64,000 nucleotides of DNA, from positions 1-64,000 of IMG/VR virus record IMGVR_UViG_3300022223_000004; one strand, 5' to 3'. Under the pieces are notes generated by a model that had not been told where the DNA came from, made no database searches, and saw nothing but the letters and a program-made list of their open reading frames with translations. The stretch is from a virus. Below, piece after piece: positions 411 to 53,681 of this stretch (the stretch's first letter is position 1; every line of letters starts with the position of its first letter). The position numbers were made by a program, and so were the translations under genes.

Positions 411-1140
411 TACCTTCTCCTGTTTGTTTAGTGGGAGTATCATCAGTGCCCGATACCACTATACGGACATACGGTCGGAGTGACCCGGCCGTTTCAACTA
501 TTAATCAATAACAGTTAAACAAAATCGGAAGCTACTTATCCTTGCCGATTTCTTTAAATGGGTTGTGCCCTTACCTTAACTCAGGTTACCTACTGGGTTG
601 TTTCATATTAATCTAGCTTGGATCATCCTACTGCCACGGTTTGTATCATCTGGGATACCTCTCGCCGTATTCATTTTATTTTGATGCAGGCTTTCCGATC
701 AGGAATGGCTACTCAACGCATCTCCATAAAATCAAGTTACTTTGATATCATACTTAACCTTATGAGTTTAGGTAGTTGTTCATCTATTGAAAGTCAGTTC
801 ACCAAACTGACCTATCATTGAATACAAACAAGTTAATCTTTTTGTCTATTGGGAAGTTTTTTTAAAATATTAAAAACCCAACTTGTTTGCATTCTTTGAT
901 CTTCATCCGTGAAGTCTCCGATGCCCCCGTGAATTTGTCTGCCCCTCCGGGTCGGGTTGCCTACTCTTAGTGTTCCGCTAGGCGTCGCGGGTCAATGTTT
1001 TGCCATTCAGGGACGTTATGAGTCTCCGCCCCGCTCGCTATCAGTTTAATATTTAACTTCGAGACGTTTTGTCTGCTGGGACTCTCGACTGAACCCATCT
1101 GATAGTTTGCATTGTAGTGTGTCTGTTTGTTCATGCTGAG
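411..1140 (-). ncRNA. Candidate long structured RNA or leader, about 730 nt
   Basis: No convincing ORF lies on either strand here. The stretch has its own promoter at its upstream end and many complementary arms: 1038-1044/1099-1105 (7 bp), 959-963/979-983 (5 bp), 901-905/910-914 (5 bp), 820-834/880-894 (15 bp with one wobble, continued inward by 851-853/877-879 and 859-865/870-876), 793-799/805-811 (7 bp), 522-528/545-551 plus 529-531/541-543, 472-478/485-491 (7 bp with one wobble), and 430-434/456-460 plus 438-441/452-455. This density of hairpins suggests a structured transcript: a large phage ncRNA or an unusually long leader for the gene at 1-410. I cannot assign it to a known RNA family by eye. 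Confidence 0.5.
820..894 (-). repeat. Long imperfect hairpin, about 25 paired bases
   Basis: The outer arms 820-834 and 880-894 match over 15 positions with one G-T wobble. The inner arms are GGG/CCC (851-853/877-879) and TTTTTAA/TTAAAAA (859-865/870-876) closing an AATA loop, with an unpaired bulge at 835-850. This is the strongest single stem in the left non-coding region. It has no terminal U-tract typical of a terminator on the transcribed strand, so a structural RNA or cruciform role is more likely. Confidence 0.6.
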
Positions 1141-1141
1141 A

Positions 1142-1171
1142 ATTATACAATGTCTAATATGACAAAGTAAA
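1142..1171 (-). promoter_or_regulatory. Sigma-70-type promoter candidate
   Basis: On the minus strand TTTACT (1171-1166) is followed 18 bases later by a perfect TATAAT (1147-1142). It points at the structured region and the gene at 1-410. A copy of the 27-bp direct repeat ends 6 bases upstream of the -35 element, so an activator or repressor could act there. This is the best promoter match I see in the window. Confidence 0.6.
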
Positions 1172-1176
1172 GCTCG

Positions 1177-1203
1177 TAAGTTATTGATTTTATTGAGGTT
1201 TTT
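1177..1203. repeat. 27-bp direct repeat, copy 1
   Basis: The unit starts TAAGTTATTGATTTTATTG and recurs at 1251-1277 with a single mismatch. The two starts are 74 bp apart, about seven helical turns. This copy abuts the promoter at 1142-1171, so a regulator-binding site is the simplest reading. Confidence 0.6.
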
Positions 1204-1250
1204 ACAAGATAGCTGAAATATTCAAAAAATCAGCGAATGCGTGATCCAGC

Positions 1251-1277
1251 TAAGTTATTGATTTTGTTGAGGTTTTT
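1251..1277. repeat. 27-bp direct repeat, copy 2
   Basis: Second copy of the unit at 1177-1203, differing at one base (G for A). It lies between the end of the small gene at 1310-1546 and the promoter. The pair may be operator sites. The sequence is unrelated to the Rep iterons at 2100-2189. Confidence 0.6.
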
Positions 1278-1309
1278 TAAAAAGTCTTAGCACTATACCT
1301 ATGTGGAAT

Positions 1310-2070: not shown

Positions 2071-2099
2071 CTCAAATCCTCCTTTATTGTAAATCCAAA

Positions 2100-2189
2100 C
2101 TATCGTACCTCGGTGATAGCCACTACTATCGTACCTCGGTGACAGGACTATCGTACCTCGGTGACAGGACTATCGTACCTCGGTGACAG
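2100..2189. repeat. Four 20-bp iterons (putative Rep binding sites)
   Basis: The unit CTATCGTACCTCGGTGACAG occurs at 2126-2145, 2148-2167 and 2170-2189. A one-base variant (GATAG end) lies at 2100-2119. Starts are 26, 22 and 22 bp apart, so the last three sit on one face of the helix at two-turn spacing. Tandem repeats of this size beside a Rep-type gene and an AT-rich tract are the classic layout of an iteron-controlled plasmid origin. Function is inferred from arrangement. Confidence 0.85.
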
Positions 2190-2475: not shown

Positions 2476-3381
2476 TCAGGGTGTCTCTTTTGCTTTAATA
2501 AAAGAAACTATCTCTCCCCTTTTTGAGGAGGAAAAGGAACAGGAATAAACCTTTTTTCCTATACCTTTATTCACTTCCTGAATGGAGCTTTGAATCCTTG
2601 CTTTTATTCTAGAGGGTGGTTGGTTTGTGGCTGTAGGAAATACTATATCTGAAAAGCGTCCAATTTCCCTTTTTAAGGGCCTACTGGTCAACAAGAAATC
2701 AAAGCTTTTTAAATAGGAATATAGATTTATGGCACTTTCACTATTCAAGGATAATAGGATTTTATGCTCCAAAAAAACAGTATTCTCTCCAAATAACATT
2801 TCTAGAAAATCCATATCAAAAGAGATTTTCACTGGCCCTTTTTCTCCTTTGTTAGGAATCACAAAGCGGCTGATTACTCCAAAAACAGAGACATCCGTAC
2901 CTGCTCCGACTTTCAATTCATATTCTCCTATAAAATGTAATTGAAGACTGGTCCATTTCCAAAGAGATTTTATGACTTTATCATAGTTGGTACTTTTAGT
3001 GGAAATTCCTACCCTTTTCAGTAATGCATAGACTGAAGGAAACACCACTGTCCGCTCCTCCCCCAATGCACTGATCATTCCAGATAATACTTTTCTATCA
3101 AATTGGGTGGGCAAGTGATTAAAGAATACCTGTAATTTGAGAAAGGCTTCCACATGGCTTTTTCCATAATACCCTATGCAGTACATTCCTTTCCGTGTCT
3201 CTAATACTCTGCCTTTATATCCTCTATCTATTGGCCATTCTTTCTTTCTAGGGAACAAGATTCTTCCCTCTTCTGAAACGTCATACCTTAATAAAGGAAG
3301 CAATGGTGAAAAACATAATGGATGCTGGGCCAAAATGTTATGTAATCTGGCCGCTGGCCTTTTTCTTTCTTCTGTTTGCAT
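2476..3381 (-). CDS. Replication initiator-like protein (Rep/RepA type)
   Basis: The 301-residue protein resembles iteron-binding plasmid initiators. The second half (about residues 170-240) has the pattern of a winged-helix Rep domain, with a hydrophobic FDMDFLEMLF segment and then a SESAINLYSYLKSF helix like the 'IrLYelLks' helix of the Rep_3/RepA/TrfA group. A basic C-terminal region (KARIQSSIQEVNK) follows. ATG at 3381 has a good AAGGAGAGAG site and lies inside the end of the upstream HTH gene (44-base overlap), so the two are coupled. The downstream iterons support the assignment. The exact Rep family cannot be fixed by eye. Confidence 0.65.
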   Translation of the reverse strand: MQTEERKRPAARLHNILAQHPLCFSPLLPLLRYDVSEEGRILFPRKKEWPIDRGYKGRVLETRKGMYCIGYYGKSHVEAFLKLQVFFNHLPTQFDRKVLSGMISALGEERTVVFPSVYALLKRVGISTKSTNYDKVIKSLWKWTSLQLHFIGEYELKVGAGTDVSVFGVISRFVIPNKGEKGPVKISFDMDFLEMLFGENTVFLEHKILLSLNSESAINLYSYLKSFDFLLTSRPLKREIGRFSDIVFPTATNQPPSRIKARIQSSIQEVNKGIGKKVYSCSFSSSKRGEIVSFIKAKETP

Positions 3382-10936: not shown

Positions 10937-13900
10937 TTATTTAACTCCTGCAACTCCCGGTGATGGTGCTATAACAACAGCGGGAATTTCAATAAACTTG
11001 CCAGTGGCTGTATGGGTAACTTTTATTGTGTACCCTGCTGAATTGCCGCCATAATTTGCCGATAAATATCTTTGGTATATTGATGATATTATAGTTCCAT
11101 CCCAAACTGATCTTCCTGTATTTGATCCTATGTCAACCGTAAAATCTCCAACAACCGCACCATATGAACTAGCAAAAGCATACCAGAATGAACGAATCTT
11201 TAAAGCAATATTTGTGCTTGATGTCTCTGAGCCATAATAAACAACATGGCGAAAAGTAAAAGTAGCAACAACAATCCCCCCTTCTTCAAAACGAATAGTG
11301 GATTCATTCCACAATTGTGTTGAATAGGTATAGGTCGCCAAATTGTCATATGTATAAATCATATAGCCGGTTCTTTTCGGCCCGTAATTTGTGCCATCGT
11401 ACTCAAATTGTATTTGTGGTGTTTGTACTGGTTGCAACGAAGATTTCTCAACCGATATTCCCGCTGAAATATAAGTTGCATCAAGGGAACTTTGTAATCT
11501 ACCGACTGAGCTTAAAGCGGTTGGAACTCGACCATCTGTTAATTCGGTTGGCCTGTTTGCAAGATACGTTGACCAATTGGCACCATACCCTGCTTGGTAG
11601 CTTGAGCCATTGTGACCGTAAAAAAATCTGTTTGTGCTATGGATCCATAAATCACCTGTATCGCCTGCTGGAGTTGTTGATTGTACAAAAATATTATTAT
11701 TGGTAGCTGAGGTTTCAATTCCAGAAAGCTTTGTATTTGCAGTGCCATCAAGATTCGCCAAACTTTTATTAATAACCTGAGTTATTAAGTCTGCCGAATT
11801 CTCTGTTGCTAATGCACCTGCATCAGAAATATTAGCCATTACATTATTGGTAACACTGGATGCCAAATCGGCCCCATTGCCTAGTTGATAACTGGAACCG
11901 TTATGACCATAAATATATTTATTGGTACTGTGGATCCAAATATCACCAGTGTCACCTGCTGGTGTACCAGTTTGGACAAAAATATTATTATTGGTTGCTG
12001 AGGTTTCAATTCCAGAAAGCTTTGTATTTGCAGTGGCGTCCACATTGGCTAAACTTTTATTTATAACTTCACCCGTGGATAAGTCCACATTATCTTTTGT
12101 CGCCAATGCACCTGAATCTGAAATATTAACCATTTGATTATTGGAAACGGAAGTTGCCAAATCAGCACCATTACCTATTTGGAAAGAGCTTCCATTATGC
12201 CCATAAATATATTTAGTGGTGCTGTGAATCCATATGTCGCCATTATCACCTGCTGGTGTACCAGTTTGTACGAATACCTGGTTTTTTGTTGCTCCTACAC
12301 TTGCAGGGTTAGGGGTAATTGGTGTCCAATTGGTCCAATCCCCCACCTCTCCATTTGCGTAGTATGATCGTATCCTATAATGTCGTGGTGCTGAGTCTGA
12401 CACATCATCTATAACCGCGGGTTCTACAAAGTTACGGGTTACTTCTGAAGCTCCTGGGGACCCAGCAGAATCCGCGGCCCTTTCATATTCATAATGGGAA
12501 ACGGCTGTTTGCCCCTCATCCTCTATCTCAAGTAGAATTCCATCTGGGATGGTTTTAAATGGCTTTAAAACTGGCTTTCTAGGTGTACTAGTTGGCACAG
12601 TTTCATCCGCTCCTGGAGTATTAAGGGATTCGCTACCTGTATCATATGTACCCGAATTAGCTTGTTCCATTACCAAAACAGGGAATCCATTTTCAAAGGA
12701 ATATTTTTTAATTCTATAAGTTCCAGAGATATCAGGAATATCAACGGTCACCATATCCCACCATCCAACTTGCAAGGCTTTCATGTTACATGGTATAGAA
12801 AGTATCTTTTGTTCCCTGGACCTCCTCTTTTCTATATTAGCGCGATACTGAGCACGGTATTCATTATCAATACCAGGACAATCTATCTCTATTATGATTT
12901 GATTGCCGCCGTCCGCTGTTTCGTATGAACTGTCAGTCATCAATTTACAGACTTCCTCTCTGTAATCCCTTGATGCACTTACATAGTTTACCTTCACAGC
13001 ATTATAAAGATCGCTAATCTGTTTTTTAGTTGTATAGGAAATAGGACCAGCTACCCAGGATTCATCTATAGTTATAGTTGGTGCGGTATATTCTCCAGCA
13101 TGGCATTTCCATGTTCCTGCTATAACGTCAAAATTAATGACTCCTGCCATACAAGCTTCCAGCATATCTATATTATCTTCCGGCTCAGAAGAGGCGAATG
13201 CTAAATTGGCTGTATATTTTTTAATGGTAGTGGTATCCGGAGCAAGGAAAGTGGTATCACATACATTGGCAGCGGCTGCAAAGGTATCCCAACCGTCCTG
13301 TGTAAAATCCTCATCTGGATCGGAACCGAGTCCACCATCTAATTCATCCATCACTATATAAGTAGCGGCTATCACCGCTGGGTTGTCGGACCATTCCCAT
13401 GTTGAGGGATCATTGGCCCTGTGCAACCCAGAGCCTCCCCTTGTGGTATCTTTCCGAACGTCATAGCATTTATTCCCTTTAATGAGCCTATTAAGCTCAG
13501 ATGGTTTTCCATTTGGAAAAGCTTTCTGGAATTTCTTCTCATTATCTGCACCCATAGGTCTTATTAATTTCAATACCGTATAGGGAATGCCTTTTAGTTT
13601 ATGGTTAACAGTCCAACCATCATATGCAGCCTCCAGCCATCCATTATAGGGCTGGGTATCTAATCCCTGATAGGATTGCAAGTATACCATAGGATTCGAG
13701 GAAGCATCTTTCCATTTGAATAGGTCAACGTAATGCACTATCCCAAGGTCCAGCACTATGTCCGCATCAGGTATTCTTTCACCATCAATCCAGAGGTCCT
13801 CTAGACCCTCAATTCCCCCTGTGTGTGTGATTCCATGAGCAATCCCCACATATAATTCTTCCTTTGATCCATCACCATCAACGTCCCTAGTTTTCACAGG

Positions 13901-24272: not shown

Positions 24273-24484
24273 TGGATTTCCTCCATTAGTTTCAAGTTTT
24301 AAACAAGGCCCGAGGAGATGAATAATACATCACTTGAGGACCACATGGTATATTGCGGTCCCCCCGGGACTCATATAAAACTCCAACACCGTTGGAGGTT
24401 AATTATGTTTTTGTGAGGCAGTCCCTTTTATTCAGGACTGCCAAACAAGGGAATAATTTACCCTAAAAGTATTTCCCGTTCCAT
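24273..24484 (-). promoter_or_regulatory. Scaffold-coat spacer with two stem-loops
   Basis: A 212-bp gap without a gene. On the minus strand CTCCAAC/GTTGGAG (24381-24387/24391-24397) forms a 7-bp hairpin followed by TTTTATAT, a weak terminator-like signal. GGCAGTCC/GGACTGCC (24417-24424/24435-24442) forms an 8-bp hairpin. They may act as attenuator or RNase-protection elements that set coat over scaffold expression. No good promoter is visible. Confidence 0.45.
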
Positions 24485-30181: not shown

Positions 30182-30331
30182 TCAGTTTTGGAGTATTTTC
30201 CTTTCAATGGTGTTTAATCTCTTTTCAATGTCTTGGAGTCTTTTTTGGTTCTTTTGAACGTTTAAAAAAATTTTCGACACCTTGAGTGGATCAAAAAAAT
30301 TAAATAATGAGGTTTGGTAAGGGATTGGCAT
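30182..30331 (-). CDS. Short coiled-coil protein, 49 residues
   Basis: A short frame with ATG at 30331 sharing its A with the TGA of the protease gene (TGATG), which implies coupled translation. The product starts MPIPYQTSLFNFFDPLKV and ends in a heptad-like helix (QKRLQDIEKRLNTIERKI). It fills what otherwise would be a 170-bp gap in a compact operon. No family known; possibly a small head or protease-linked factor. Confidence 0.65.
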   Translation of the reverse strand: MPIPYQTSLFNFFDPLKVSKIFLNVQKNQKRLQDIEKRLNTIERKILQN

Positions 30332-30939
30332 CATAAGCTTTTCCCATCCCATACATCATAGCAATAGGAGAGTCCGCCTGTGTAAATATCTACCAAAGAG
30401 GCAATATGAATTGCCTCAGGTGCTGTGGCACCTCCGAGTAAAGCTCCCATGGCGATATCGGTTCCTGATCCTATAGCGACGCAATGTTCTTTCCGTGCCT
30501 CAGCTAAAGCCTTCCAATACCCCTTCCGTTCTTCAATGTCCGCAGTGGCCGAAAGGGTATCTTTTGCTATAGTCTTCCGTACACAAGGAATGGAATCAAA
30601 AAGGTCGAATATCTCTATCTCCAATGTCTGGGCACCATTGCACTTTACAGATATGGATAGGAATTTCCCTCTTGGCAAGGCAGTAGAATCTTCCAGGTCT
30701 GAAAGCATTTTAGGGAATTCAGGGTTTTTCCCTAACACGGTATCCTTATACCATTTAGTAAACCGCAGGACATTAGTACGGAGTCCCGTCCCCCCAGTAT
30801 AGTGAAATAACTCTCCTTCACCCTTAGGGTAATGGGAAAATATCTGTAACTTATTCATAGACCCTAAAAGGACAGTATCCCCTGAGGTGAATTGCCCGTC
30901 TGAAGCAAGTATCCGTCCGTCAAAAGCAATGGTGGTCAT
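30331..30939 (-). CDS. HslV/proteasome-like Ntn-hydrolase protease
   Basis: The 202-residue product begins MTTIAFDGRILASDGQ. After Met removal it has Thr1, Asp13 and Lys29, which align with the Thr1, Asp17 and Lys33 active site of HslV with a four-residue gap. FHYTGGTG and AIGSGTDIAMGALLGGAT match the HslV/proteasome beta core. No HslU-like unfoldase is in the window. Directly after the portal, where many phages keep a head maturation protease, this may be the prohead protease. ATG has AAAGGAG. Confidence 0.8.
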   Translation of the reverse strand: MTTIAFDGRILASDGQFTSGDTVLLGSMNKLQIFSHYPKGEGELFHYTGGTGLRTNVLRFTKWYKDTVLGKNPEFPKMLSDLEDSTALPRGKFLSISVKCNGAQTLEIEIFDLFDSIPCVRKTIAKDTLSATADIEERKGYWKALAEARKEHCVAIGSGTDIAMGALLGGATAPEAIHIASLVDIYTGGLSYCYDVWDGKSL

Positions 30940-35482: not shown

Positions 35483-36124
35483 TTATAAGAATGCCTCATC
35501 TGGATCATACGCATCTTCCGTAGTCAATCCTACGTCGGTTGCCTTGGCCCAAGTATTCTTATCCCGTCTTTCAAGTATAGTTATATCCCGTACCCAGGTA
35601 GGAACAAACTTATCTGGAGCCAAACTTCTGGTGATTATTTTCTTTCTGAATAACGCTAAGGCCCTGTTTATCGCCAAATAATAATATGCATATTTTTTAT
35701 GAGATTTGGACGCCTTCTCTTCCCAGTCATCCTCATAAGATGCCACAAAATCCTTTCCTGCCTTCATCCAGCGGTAATGGGTATTTTCAAATATGCCCAA
35801 TAGGAAACAGGCGTCATGGACTGGAATAAAATGGCTCAGATAAAAACACATTACTCGGCATAACTCTGGGGAACATTCTGCGGGGGACCCTACGGGAAGG
35901 AAAAAGTTTTCTGCCTCTTCCAAAGTGGCTGTACGCATATACTCTCGGAATAGGGTATCTTCTAATGGTTTAGCACCTTTCGGCTTTTTGCTGATTTTTA
36001 TCCGTTTCCCCTGTGGAGTCCTTTTTTGGTAGGTTTTTAATTTAATTCTTTTCGGTTCTGGAATACCTTTCCCTTCTTTCTTTTTCTGGGACTTCGGTTT
36101 TCTTTTAATTTTGATCATAGGCAT
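35483..36124 (-). CDS. terS: Terminase small subunit-like protein
   Basis: The 213-residue product has a very basic N-terminal 60 residues, then an HTH-like segment (ACFLLGIFENTHYRWMKAGKDF) and a helical domain ending VRDITILERRDKNTW. This matches small terminases that bind the packaging site. Start chosen at ATG 36124, 11 bases after GGAGG. That GGAGG lies in a CCTCC-AAAA-GGAGG hairpin (36149-36136), which may limit translation. The five-hairpin array just upstream may be its binding site. Confidence 0.75.
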   Translation of the reverse strand: MPMIKIKRKPKSQKKKEGKGIPEPKRIKLKTYQKRTPQGKRIKISKKPKGAKPLEDTLFREYMRTATLEEAENFFLPVGSPAECSPELCRVMCFYLSHFIPVHDACFLLGIFENTHYRWMKAGKDFVASYEDDWEEKASKSHKKYAYYYLAINRALALFRKKIITRSLAPDKFVPTWVRDITILERRDKNTWAKATDVGLTTEDAYDPDEAFL

Positions 36125-36149: not shown

Positions 36150-36220
36150 AAACTAACAAAGTCCACGTTGGAGTCGAATTTTTCTGGAATATATTATATT
36201 TAATTGGCATCCACATTCCT

Positions 36221-36250
36221 ATTATAAAAGGCAAAGGTTTATTTTGATCA
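36221..36250 (-). promoter_or_regulatory. Promoter candidate for the head operon
   Basis: On the minus strand TGATCA (36250-36245) and TATAAT (36226-36221) are 18 bases apart. The -10 is perfect and the -35 poor (3 of 6). A second TATAAT-like box lies near 36195. Either could start the packaging/head transcript just after the hairpin array. Confidence 0.4.
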
Positions 36251-36256
36251 GTAAAT

Positions 36257-36481
36257 GAAGAAAGGGAGGAAGCCGGACTGATTGAAAGCCCAAGGGAAAC
36301 TTCCTCCCCTTTCTTCTGGTGATAAGACCTCTGGGTATCAGGCGTTTTAGGTCTTATCACCTACCCCCCAAATAATAGCCAGGAAACCATTATTTGGGTT
36401 CTCTCGAAAAGGTAAAGCGATTTGGGAAACCTTACCTTTTCTATACCACTCGAATAGGCTCGGTGTACCTATTCTAAGTGG
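36257..36481. other. Array of five consecutive stem-loops before terS
   Basis: No credible ORF is present. Five hairpins follow each other: A 36257-36272/36300-36316 (16 bp, one bulge), B 36318-36330/36349-36361 (13 bp, perfect), C 36367-36376/36389-36398 (10 bp), D 36406-36415/36432-36441 (10 bp), E 36446-36450+36452-36458/36468-36474+36477-36481 (12 bp, small internal loop). Loops of A, C and D end in GGAAAC just before the right arm. None has a U-tract, so they are not terminators. Options are a terS-recognised packaging site, a structured RNA, or a protein-binding array. Confidence 0.75.
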
Positions 36482-36585
36482 CAGACCCTATCGTTAATTG
36501 AGGTTCTTTTGTGTTTGAAAGGATTTACCCTCTCCGTTTCATAGATCACCTCCTTTTTGCCTATTTAATTAAATAAATTCAGCAC
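36482..36585. other. Short non-coding stretch before the hairpin array
   Basis: About 100 bp with no gene. It contains a CACCTCCTTT segment that would be a Shine-Dalgarno on the minus strand, but no start codon follows in a useful frame. A palindromic AT-rich patch (TTTAATTAAATAAA) lies near 36564. Nothing more can be supported. Confidence 0.35.
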
Positions 36586-37011
36586 CTAAGTATATATCTC
36601 CTTTTCTGGCTTAATTTCCAAAATTATCCTTTTCTTTTTAGTCGCATACCTCATGGTAGCCCAGGTTCCTGACCTTTTCATTTCCTTCATGGTATTAGGA
36701 ACTGCTATCAATGCTTCCGTTTGGTTCACTATTTCCTTATTCCTTTCTAGGAAATGCCTGGGTGGTTCTGAAACATCATAAGGAGCATAGGCCCTAAATT
36801 CAGTATTAATAGGAGGGTGCTGGTGTATTCTGAATCCTAAATGTTTTGCAATAGCCGCGGCATCTTCATCTGCCCCTATACAATCCCCATGGTGGAATAC
36901 CCTAAATCCCATACCCCATAATTCCCTTAAAGTTTGCTTTAACAGAGTTAATTGCCTTGCAGTCATTCCTTTTCTGGATCCTGTAAATCCTACGTGCCTG
37001 TCTTGGAACAT
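36586..37011 (-). CDS. SLOG-superfamily protein (LOG/DprA-like)
   Basis: The 141-residue product has the Rossmann-like SLOG pattern: VGFTGSRKGMTARQ at the N-terminus, FHHGDCIGADEDAAAIAKHLGF, HPP, then ERNKEIVNQTEALIAVP and GTWATMRYATKKKR. SLOG domains bind nucleotides or NAD-derived ligands and appear in DprA, LOG and defence proteins. In phages they are often single-domain proteins of unknown role. ATG has AGGAGAGTGAT and follows the small TM gene. Confidence 0.8.
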   Translation of the reverse strand: MFQDRHVGFTGSRKGMTARQLTLLKQTLRELWGMGFRVFHHGDCIGADEDAAAIAKHLGFRIHQHPPINTEFRAYAPYDVSEPPRHFLERNKEIVNQTEALIAVPNTMKEMKRSGTWATMRYATKKKRIILEIKPEKEIYT

Positions 37012-51086: not shown

Positions 51087-53681
51087 TTATTCAAAGTCAG
51101 TGGATGAAACCACCAGTAAAGTTTTTTGGTCTGCCCAATTATCCCCCACTTCAAACTCAGCGATCAGTGGCACATTAATAAAGTCAAGGTCAGGGAAAAC
51201 CATTATCTCTCCTATCAACAATACATCATCCTTATAGGTATCTGCATTTAAGTAAAAACCTATTTCATCATGGGTATTAAGTATTTGGGCAAAATCAGTT
51301 TCCGCATCAAGCCTATTCTGTGCATCAATGGTAATATCTGATGCCAACCCTTGGATACCAGTATTAATCACCTCATTATATTTGATAGGACCTTGACGGC
51401 GCCGACCTAATAATGATTCCACATATCCAAACTGGTGATAGTCCCTCAGTGTTTTATTTTGCCAATCTTTCAATCCTGGATGCTCTTCCCAAAACTCTCC
51501 TGCTAATTCAAAAGCCAGATCGGTTGTGCATTTCATATACCTTGCCAAAGAGGGAGGGGCTGCTCCATAAATTAACGGGAAAACCCATCCATTCTTTGCG
51601 GCATGTCTGGCTTGTTTTATTAAAAGTTTTTTATCCTCAATTTTGTATTCTTCATAGATTCTTTCCAGAAATCCTTTATCCTCTTCCATGAAACGATTTG
51701 CCCAGGTCTGGTGTACATCCATTCCCCCATTTAAAGACTCCACCAATTTTTCATCCCTAGATGCCATAGCCGCACAACGGAACTCAATAGCACCATAATC
51801 TCCTAAAACCATTTTCATCCCTTTCGGTGCCTTTATAACCTTCCTTATGTATTTATTTTTATGTTTAGGGTAGTTCTGGAGATTCGGATCGGAGCTACTT
51901 AGCCTCCCCGTAGTGGTAAATTTATCATTATAATTAGGATGAATTCTTCCATCGTCTGCGGTATAGGTATAAATAGCCTCTAGGTTGGTTCCTTTTCTGG
52001 AGTTTAATGACCTATACTCTATAATTAAATGAGGAGATTTATACTCATTTTCAGGGATGGATAGTAATGCCTTTTCATCCGTTGATTCCAACACCTCCTT
52101 CCTTTTCAAAACATCTCTAAAAAGGAAAGAAACATCTTGGGTGGATTCAGGATTAAAATCTGACTTCCCAGACATTCTTTTGAATTTTTTAAGCTCAGAG
52201 GTTTTGTCCAATTCTTTCTTGATTTCAGAGAGCCTCTTGGTAATCTTTTTATCCAATCTCTTGGTTTCTTTAAGATCAGGAACTAATCCTTTAATAGATA
52301 GGGAAGAAAGGGTACGACTAGTCCTTATATGATGTGGATAAACAAAGTCTAAAAGCCTCCTGTTTTCCTTTCTTAATAAAACCTTGCGCTGTTGTTCAAA
52401 TAGCAAATAGGTCATTTTGGCATCGGCTCCATTATATAACAGTACCTCTTCCAAATCCTCTCCAATCATATTTGTTTTATCTAAAGGGAAAAAGGATTTC
52501 ATTCTAATTCCAAAATACTGGAAAACTAAAGAGTCTAAATCCAATCCAGTTTTTCCTTTCTTCCTGGGACGCTGGTCTAGGCAATAGGCTTGGGACATGG
52601 TATCTTCCCATCGCACCTCATCTTGTCTCCTTTTTAGGTAGAGTGTGCCTATACCAAATACACTACCAGACCATTCCATTTCCATATTAGCATTATGGGC
52701 AATCTTATTTCCTGATTTAGACAAAAAGCTTTTAAACTTTTTCTTAACCTTCTCCCTTAGTTTAATTGGCCATCCTCTAGGGTGTAATAAAGGAAAAGAG
52801 TAAGTCTCCTCTCCATCAGATATGGAAGCTGTGAGTAGACAAGAATCAGAGAAGTAAGGGCGCAGTCGTTGAGTTTCATAATCAATTGCAAACTCCTCCT
52901 TTTCTGCAAATCTATCCAAAACCTTGCAGAATTTTTTATATCCTTTTTCTGAATAGTCAGACAAAACCTTAACGCCATCCAGCACCTGTTCCTTATCCTC
53001 AAAAAATGGAATAGGAATTTTTCTTTTGGACTCCCTTTTATGCTCCTTATGGATTTTTTTTAATTCTAATGTAAAAATATGCTCCTCAGGGGATTCTCTG
53101 TACCCTCCTCTTTTATCATGTATCCCAGAATCTACCAAAGAGTTTAACGAAGGTAAGCAATAATACCAGCAAGTATGCTTTCCAATCCTAATTGGAAATC
53201 TTTTGCCTCGCCAAATCATCAGATTGCTCTCACCAGAAAATCTTTTTAATGGAGTGCTACCCAACCCTATCACTGCCCAAGGCTTTCTTTTCTCTATGTC
53301 CTTTTCTATCCGAGAATGGCAACAATTTACCTCTACCTCAGTGGGGTCCCTGTCTGAGGGAGTAACACATTTTATTACATTGGAAAACCCTGCTGATCTT
53401 TTCATCTCCCTGGGCAAAGAATCGAACAGGTACTCCTGATCATCTAAACTCAGTGGATGTCCATTCATATCGGCGGAGATGGAAGGTGCTGGTCCTACAA
53501 AATAGAAAATAGGGTGTTTAGCACCTGCATCCTCCATTTTGGGATTTTCCATTTTTTTATTCCTGTCTAAGGGACAGGCTTTACACCCATACCCCCAAAG
53601 GTCCTCTAAAGGGATTTTTCTTAAATCCCTAACAGAGGCTTTTTTGGAAGCAATGGAATCCTGCTTAAAGAAAAAAGACAT
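51087..53681 (-). CDS. Family A DNA polymerase with N-terminal UDG-like domain
   Basis: The 864-residue protein has three parts. Residues about 20-200 resemble family 4 uracil-DNA glycosylases: Cys33-x2-Cys36 (CKACPLD), IFYFVGPAPS, NVIKCVTPSDRD (Cys105) and WAVIGLGSTPLKRF, fit for a 4Fe-4S cluster. Residues 260-460 are a 3'-5' exonuclease (AIDYETQ, Asp267/Glu269). The polymerase has motif A GDYGAIEFR (Asp628), motif B RHAAKNGWVFPLIYG (Arg692, Lys696) and motif C HDE at 804-806. It is the replicative enzyme. Start overlaps the clamp stop. Confidence 0.9.
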   Translation of the reverse strand: MSFFFKQDSIASKKASVRDLRKIPLEDLWGYGCKACPLDRNKKMENPKMEDAGAKHPIFYFVGPAPSISADMNGHPLSLDDQEYLFDSLPREMKRSAGFSNVIKCVTPSDRDPTEVEVNCCHSRIEKDIEKRKPWAVIGLGSTPLKRFSGESNLMIWRGKRFPIRIGKHTCWYYCLPSLNSLVDSGIHDKRGGYRESPEEHIFTLELKKIHKEHKRESKRKIPIPFFEDKEQVLDGVKVLSDYSEKGYKKFCKVLDRFAEKEEFAIDYETQRLRPYFSDSCLLTASISDGEETYSFPLLHPRGWPIKLREKVKKKFKSFLSKSGNKIAHNANMEMEWSGSVFGIGTLYLKRRQDEVRWEDTMSQAYCLDQRPRKKGKTGLDLDSLVFQYFGIRMKSFFPLDKTNMIGEDLEEVLLYNGADAKMTYLLFEQQRKVLLRKENRRLLDFVYPHHIRTSRTLSSLSIKGLVPDLKETKRLDKKITKRLSEIKKELDKTSELKKFKRMSGKSDFNPESTQDVSFLFRDVLKRKEVLESTDEKALLSIPENEYKSPHLIIEYRSLNSRKGTNLEAIYTYTADDGRIHPNYNDKFTTTGRLSSSDPNLQNYPKHKNKYIRKVIKAPKGMKMVLGDYGAIEFRCAAMASRDEKLVESLNGGMDVHQTWANRFMEEDKGFLERIYEEYKIEDKKLLIKQARHAAKNGWVFPLIYGAAPPSLARYMKCTTDLAFELAGEFWEEHPGLKDWQNKTLRDYHQFGYVESLLGRRRQGPIKYNEVINTGIQGLASDITIDAQNRLDAETDFAQILNTHDEIGFYLNADTYKDDVLLIGEIMVFPDLDFINVPLIAEFEVGDNWADQKTLLVVSSTDFE

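What the first reader, a model, noticed from the sequence alone, without database searches (positions are those of the whole stretch)
36257..36481. Five consecutive stem-loops upstream of the small terminase
Stems of 16, 13, 10, 10 and 12 bp follow one another with almost no spacer in 225 bp that codes for nothing. Chance cannot explain this. Three loops share GGAAAC before the right arm, and a fourth GGAAAC follows the terS ribosome-site hairpin. No U-tract is present, so they are not terminators. A terS-bound packaging (pac/cos-like) site, a packaging RNA or a phage ncRNA are candidates.
Basis: partly seen in the sequence, partly recalled or inferred. Interest (0 to 1): 0.78.

Follow-up and report, generated by a model that had tools for sequence, protein, structure and literature searches.

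The report
Phage late-operon five-hairpin RNA leader
Just ahead of the packaging and capsid genes of an uncultured phage lies a 225-base non-coding stretch that folds, as RNA on the gene-sense strand, into five back-to-back hairpins behind the strongest ribosome-docking sequence of the genome; it looks like a structured RNA leader for the late genes rather than a DNA packaging site, but no relative found carries it, so its function is not proven.

Summary
The five hairpins are real: 36257-36483, non-coding, no U-tracts. One of 1000 shuffles gave five strong hairpins, and no other of 2,810 windows of the 70.5-kb genome does. The G-U asymmetry points to RNA on the gene-sense strand rather than a DNA site. 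Just upstream on the same strand sits the genome's strongest Shine-Dalgarno (13 nt, duplex -22.1 kcal/mol) in front of a five-codon reading frame; the terS ribosome site lies in its own small hairpin. The array fills the junction between a DprA/SLOG-like gene and terS, TerL and portal. No Rfam family, phage, plasmid or viral contig matched. Related terS genes (46% identity at best) lack it, so covariation is untestable. My preferred reading, inferred only, is a structured leader of the late mRNA acting in cis on its stability and translation, like STAB-SD/aprE leaders. A separate small RNA or a put-like antiterminator are live rivals. A TerS-bound pac site is less likely. The origin is more likely at iterons 2099-2189.

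The parts
36444..36483 (-). hairpin A (first transcribed), 16 pairs, one bulge, 7-nt loop
   Evidence: -20.5 kcal/mol on -, -13.6 on +; 3 G-U pairs on -, none on +
36406..36441 (-). hairpin B, 13 pairs; GGUUUCC spans the end of the left arm and the loop
   Evidence: -15.1 on -, -11.3 on +; 2 G-U pairs
36367..36398 (-). hairpin C, 14 pairs, 4-nt loop; GGUUUCC at the end of the left arm
   Evidence: -17.9 on -, -10.3 on +; 3 G-U pairs
36318..36361 (-). hairpin D, 13 perfect pairs plus 3 inside
   Evidence: -21.8 on -, -21.7 on +
36257..36316 (-). hairpin E, long stem with one bulge and an inner helix, 23 pairs; GUUUCCC at the end of the left arm
   Evidence: -31.4 on -, -25.0 on +; 3 G-U pairs
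36544..36556 (-). AAAGGAGGTGATC, 13-nt Shine-Dalgarno, strongest anti-SD complement of the genome
   Evidence: only copy; duplex -22.1 kcal/mol, next best -19.2
36525..36542 (-). five-codon reading frame ATG AAA CGG AGA GGG TAA behind that Shine-Dalgarno
   Evidence: sequence
36193..36226 (-). two TATAAT hexamers between the array and terS (possible promoter, weak)
   Evidence: such matches are common in this genome
36136..36149 (-). small hairpin CCTCC-AAAA-GGAGG that holds the terS ribosome site
   Evidence: region not more stable than shuffles, z -0.9
35483..36124 (-). terS, small terminase (213 aa)
   Evidence: phrog_4102, E 7e-9
36586..37011 (-). SLOG/DprA-like gene, last gene before the array

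Best explanation
A structured RNA leader, transcribed from the - strand, that works in cis on the late (packaging and capsid) mRNA. Shown: five hairpins predicted on the gene-sense strand far beyond chance, preceded by a uniquely strong Shine-Dalgarno with a five-codon frame and followed by terS, whose ribosome site can form a small hairpin. Inferred: a transcript from the upstream genes or from a promoter near 36600 runs through the array; a ribosome docked on the strong Shine-Dalgarno and the hairpins shield the RNA from exonucleases and separate the late message from the upstream one; terS translation is kept low by its own hairpin.
For: Sense-strand folding bias, z -8.2 against -2.85 and 11 against 2 G-U pairs; uniqueness in the genome; position at the junction to the late genes, all on one strand; strongest SD of the genome directly upstream; no U-tract, so transcription can pass through. 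Leaders with a strong SD, even without a start codon, and with a 5' stem-loop are known to stabilise whole mRNAs (PMC3997798, citing STAB-SD and aprE work).
Against: No transcript data. Possible -10 boxes lie downstream of the array, in which case the late mRNA would start after it. The leader SD is predicted to be mostly paired (open probability 0.02 for 8 nt). No relative found shares the array, so no covariation supports the pairs.
Confidence: 0.42

Rival explanations
1. A separate phage small RNA of about 250-330 nt, made from its own promoter or cut out of the upstream transcript, acting in trans by binding a protein or ribosomes through its hairpins and GUUUCC segments.
For: Compact, highly structured, non-coding; three of five hairpins share GUUUCC at the end of the left arm.
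Against: No convincing promoter or terminator bounds it; arms do not recur elsewhere in the genome; no Rfam match.
Confidence: 0.22
2. A nascent-RNA element that modifies RNA polymerase so that it reads through terminators in the late operon, as HK022 put does.
For: Consecutive stem-loops at the start of a long one-strand operon; put RNAs are two stem-loops in about 70 nt (PMC9378689).
Against: Five hairpins, not two; no sequence or Rfam match; put lies downstream of early promoters.
Confidence: 0.13
3. A DNA packaging (pac or cos-like) site bound by TerS, the palindromes being DNA landmarks.
For: Lies directly upstream of terS; pac sites are often in or near terS (general knowledge); four GGAAAC copies could be binding repeats.
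Against: G-U pairs favour one RNA strand, which DNA binding does not explain; absent in phages with related TerS.
Confidence: 0.11
4. A structured end or barrier of the upstream transcript that stops 3' exonucleases or polymerase without a U-tract.
For: Lies immediately after the last upstream gene; hairpins without U-tract.
Against: One hairpin usually suffices; does not explain the strong SD before it.
Confidence: 0.08
5. Origin of replication or recombination element.
For: Hairpin cluster beside an AT-rich stretch.
Against: Four 22-bp iterons beside a Rep3-like gene lie at 2099-2189; no GC-skew change here.
Confidence: 0.04

Closest known systems
STAB-SD / aprE-type 5' mRNA stabilisers (Bacillus)
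   Same: Strong Shine-Dalgarno upstream of the first real gene plus stem-loop structure in the leader
   Different: Five hairpins, placed after the SD; in a phage; stabilisation untested
HK022 put RNA
   Same: Consecutive stem-loops with almost no spacer at the head of a phage operon
   Different: Five hairpins, no shared sequence, before late rather than early genes
phi29-type packaging RNA
   Same: Phage-encoded structured RNA, here next to packaging genes
   Different: No Rfam match; this phage has TerS and TerL and a family A polymerase
pac/cos sites beside terS
   Same: Position
   Different: RNA-strand bias; not shared by phages with related TerS

Membership tests
Intrinsic terminator | GC-rich stem followed by U-tract | tested here: not met
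   no terminator-like site in the array on either strand
Known Rfam RNA, phi29-type packaging RNA included | match to a covariance model of Rfam 15 | tested here: not met
HK022 put RNA | two stem-loops in about 70 nt downstream of an early promoter | tested here: not met
   five hairpins in 227 nt before late genes; description from PMC9378689
HK022 put RNA | antitermination without a protein factor | not testable with these tools
   needs a transcription assay
STAB-SD 5' stabiliser | strong Shine-Dalgarno in the untranslated leader | tested here: met
   with the caveats that a five-codon frame follows it and that the transcript start is unknown
STAB-SD 5' stabiliser | prolongs mRNA life in cis | not testable with these tools
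   needs half-life measurement
pac/cos site | packaging starts there | not testable with these tools
   needs virion end mapping
pac/cos site | site shared by phages with related TerS | tested here: not met
   relatives are distant (46% identity at best), so a weak test
Conserved structured RNA | compensatory changes in relatives | tested here: inconclusive
   no homologous array in 30 related records or by sequence searches
Iteron origin | direct repeats beside an initiator gene | tested here: not met
   no such repeats at the array; they lie at 2099-2189

The most novel reading that the evidence does not exclude
A new kind of phage RNA in which a maximal Shine-Dalgarno with a dummy five-codon frame captures ribosomes and a five-hairpin tail holds or protects them, acting as a switch from host and early to late translation.
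Probability: 0.07. Interest if true: 0.7.

Novelty: new variant of a known kind. Interest (0 to 1): 0.4.

Why it matters
If it is a cis leader, it shows how a phage with nearly all genes on one strand may set apart its late messages by RNA structure and ribosome docking instead of, or in addition to, a promoter switch. It also shows that palindromes next to terS should be tested for strand bias before being called packaging sites.

Tried and rejected
TerS itself and the 502-aa gene between terS and terL as baits found no relative; a TerS alignment found 16 distant ones. Exact hairpin patterns in viral contigs gave only hits without the rest of the array: hairpin D in one contig, in a stretch without neighbouring hairpins of this kind, hairpin B in 60 contigs with at best E 0.39 to the three-hairpin model. 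The SD plus mini-frame pattern had no match. Covariance models of A-B-C and D-E found nothing in 30 related records. Paper searches found no described five-hairpin element before terS. A shared promoter motif among intergenic regions was not found. Taking the + strand as the acting strand was rejected on stability and G-U counts.

Full report
Setting. The window is bases 1-64000 of a 70,498-base viral record. Nearly all genes read on the - strand. Downstream of the finding (in - direction) come terS (phrog_4102), a 502-aa gene of unknown family, TerL, and a DUF4055 portal; upstream lies a 141-aa SLOG/DprA-like gene. The best TerL relative is 58% identical; named phages stay below 49% (Vibrio phages of the MAR10/SSP002 kind), so the phage is far from anything described.

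The observation. Five hairpins lie at 36257-36483. Folding the 311-nt region gives -119.7 kcal/mol on - (z -8.2) and -96.3 on + (z -2.85). Each hairpin is as stable or more stable on -; the minimum-energy structures hold 11 G-U pairs on - and 2 on +, the latter within hairpin D. A G-U pair on one strand is an A-C mismatch on the other, so this asymmetry is what selection for an RNA on the - strand would leave; it was counted on predicted structures, whose method treats both strands alike. In 1000 dinucleotide shuffles one had five hairpins of -10 kcal/mol or better, and none reached the observed energy. In the whole genome only this place has five hairpins of -13 or better in 250 nt, and in 14,292 windows including 28 relatives' loci it has the lowest energy for its G+C content.

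Surroundings. On the - strand, 60 bases before hairpin A, ends AAAGGAGGTGATC, the only 13-nt complement of the usual 16S 3' end in the genome and the strongest one by duplex energy (-22.1 against -19.2 for the next). It is followed at short spacing by ATG AAA CGG AGA GGG TAA. The terS ribosome site AAAAGGAGGTG repeats 11 bases of it and sits in CCTCC-AAAA-GGAGG. That hairpin region is not unusual by itself (z -0.9). Two TATAAT boxes lie between array and terS, but such matches are frequent in this AT-rich genome.

Relatives. TerS relatives were found in L003, L004, L014, L082 and others; the closest, L082, is 46% identical over residues 80-213, the aligned L003, L004 and L014 proteins 31-39%. 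L014 even keeps the SLOG-terS order, with two strong hairpins in a 149-nt gap. None has an array like this one, single-sequence covariance models found nothing in 30 related records, and blastn found nothing in phages or plasmids. Very near records may be hidden from these tools, so absence of close kin is not proof of uniqueness. With no homologue, pairing cannot be tested by covariation.

Function. RNA-strand bias, position between upstream genes and the late genes, the exceptional SD and absence of U-tracts fit best with a structured leader acting in cis. Strong SDs without a real gene, and 5' stem-loops, are established mRNA stabilisers in Bacillus (PMC3997798). The mechanism here is inference. 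The rivals are a separate small RNA, a put-like antiterminator (PMC9378689), a structured transcript end, and a pac site. The origin of replication is better placed at the iterons 2099-2189 beside a Rep3-like gene, itself a sub-threshold Pfam match.

Verdict. A real and statistically outstanding structured element, most likely RNA, lineage-specific in present data, function open.

Noticed in passing
window 2099-2189 and 2476-3381: Four 22-bp tandem repeats (ACTATCGTACCTCGGTGACAGG) near a gene with a weak, sub-threshold Rep_3 initiator match (E 9e-4): possibly a plasmid-like iteron origin in a tailed phage.
   Followed up: partly
window 24273-24484; L002:7771-8120; L004:13214-13443: The gap between scaffold and coat genes is also strongly structured, and L002 and L004 share TCCCGGTGGGA there (window: TCCCGGGGGGA): a possible conserved leader of the coat gene.
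   Followed up: partly
window 36525-36556: Maximal Shine-Dalgarno before a five-codon frame MKRRG; could be a minigene or a decayed gene start.
   Followed up: partly
window 1135-1309: Near-identical direct repeat AAAACCTCAAYAAAATCAATAACTTA twice, close to a good sigma-70-like promoter (TTTACT-18-TATAAT).
   Followed up: no
window 51087-53681: Family A DNA polymerase with an N-terminal uracil-DNA-glycosylase-like domain and a 3'-5' exonuclease domain in one protein.
   Followed up: no
window 30331-30939: HslV-family peptidase relative (phrog_1040) among the late genes.
   Followed up: no
window 11643-12268: 294-bp tandem duplication (79% matches) inside the 1064-aa gene.
   Followed up: no
record G000, bases 1-15 and 70484-70498: The first and last 15 bases of the record are identical: an assembly overlap of a circular or permuted genome, or a very short end repeat.
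   Followed up: no
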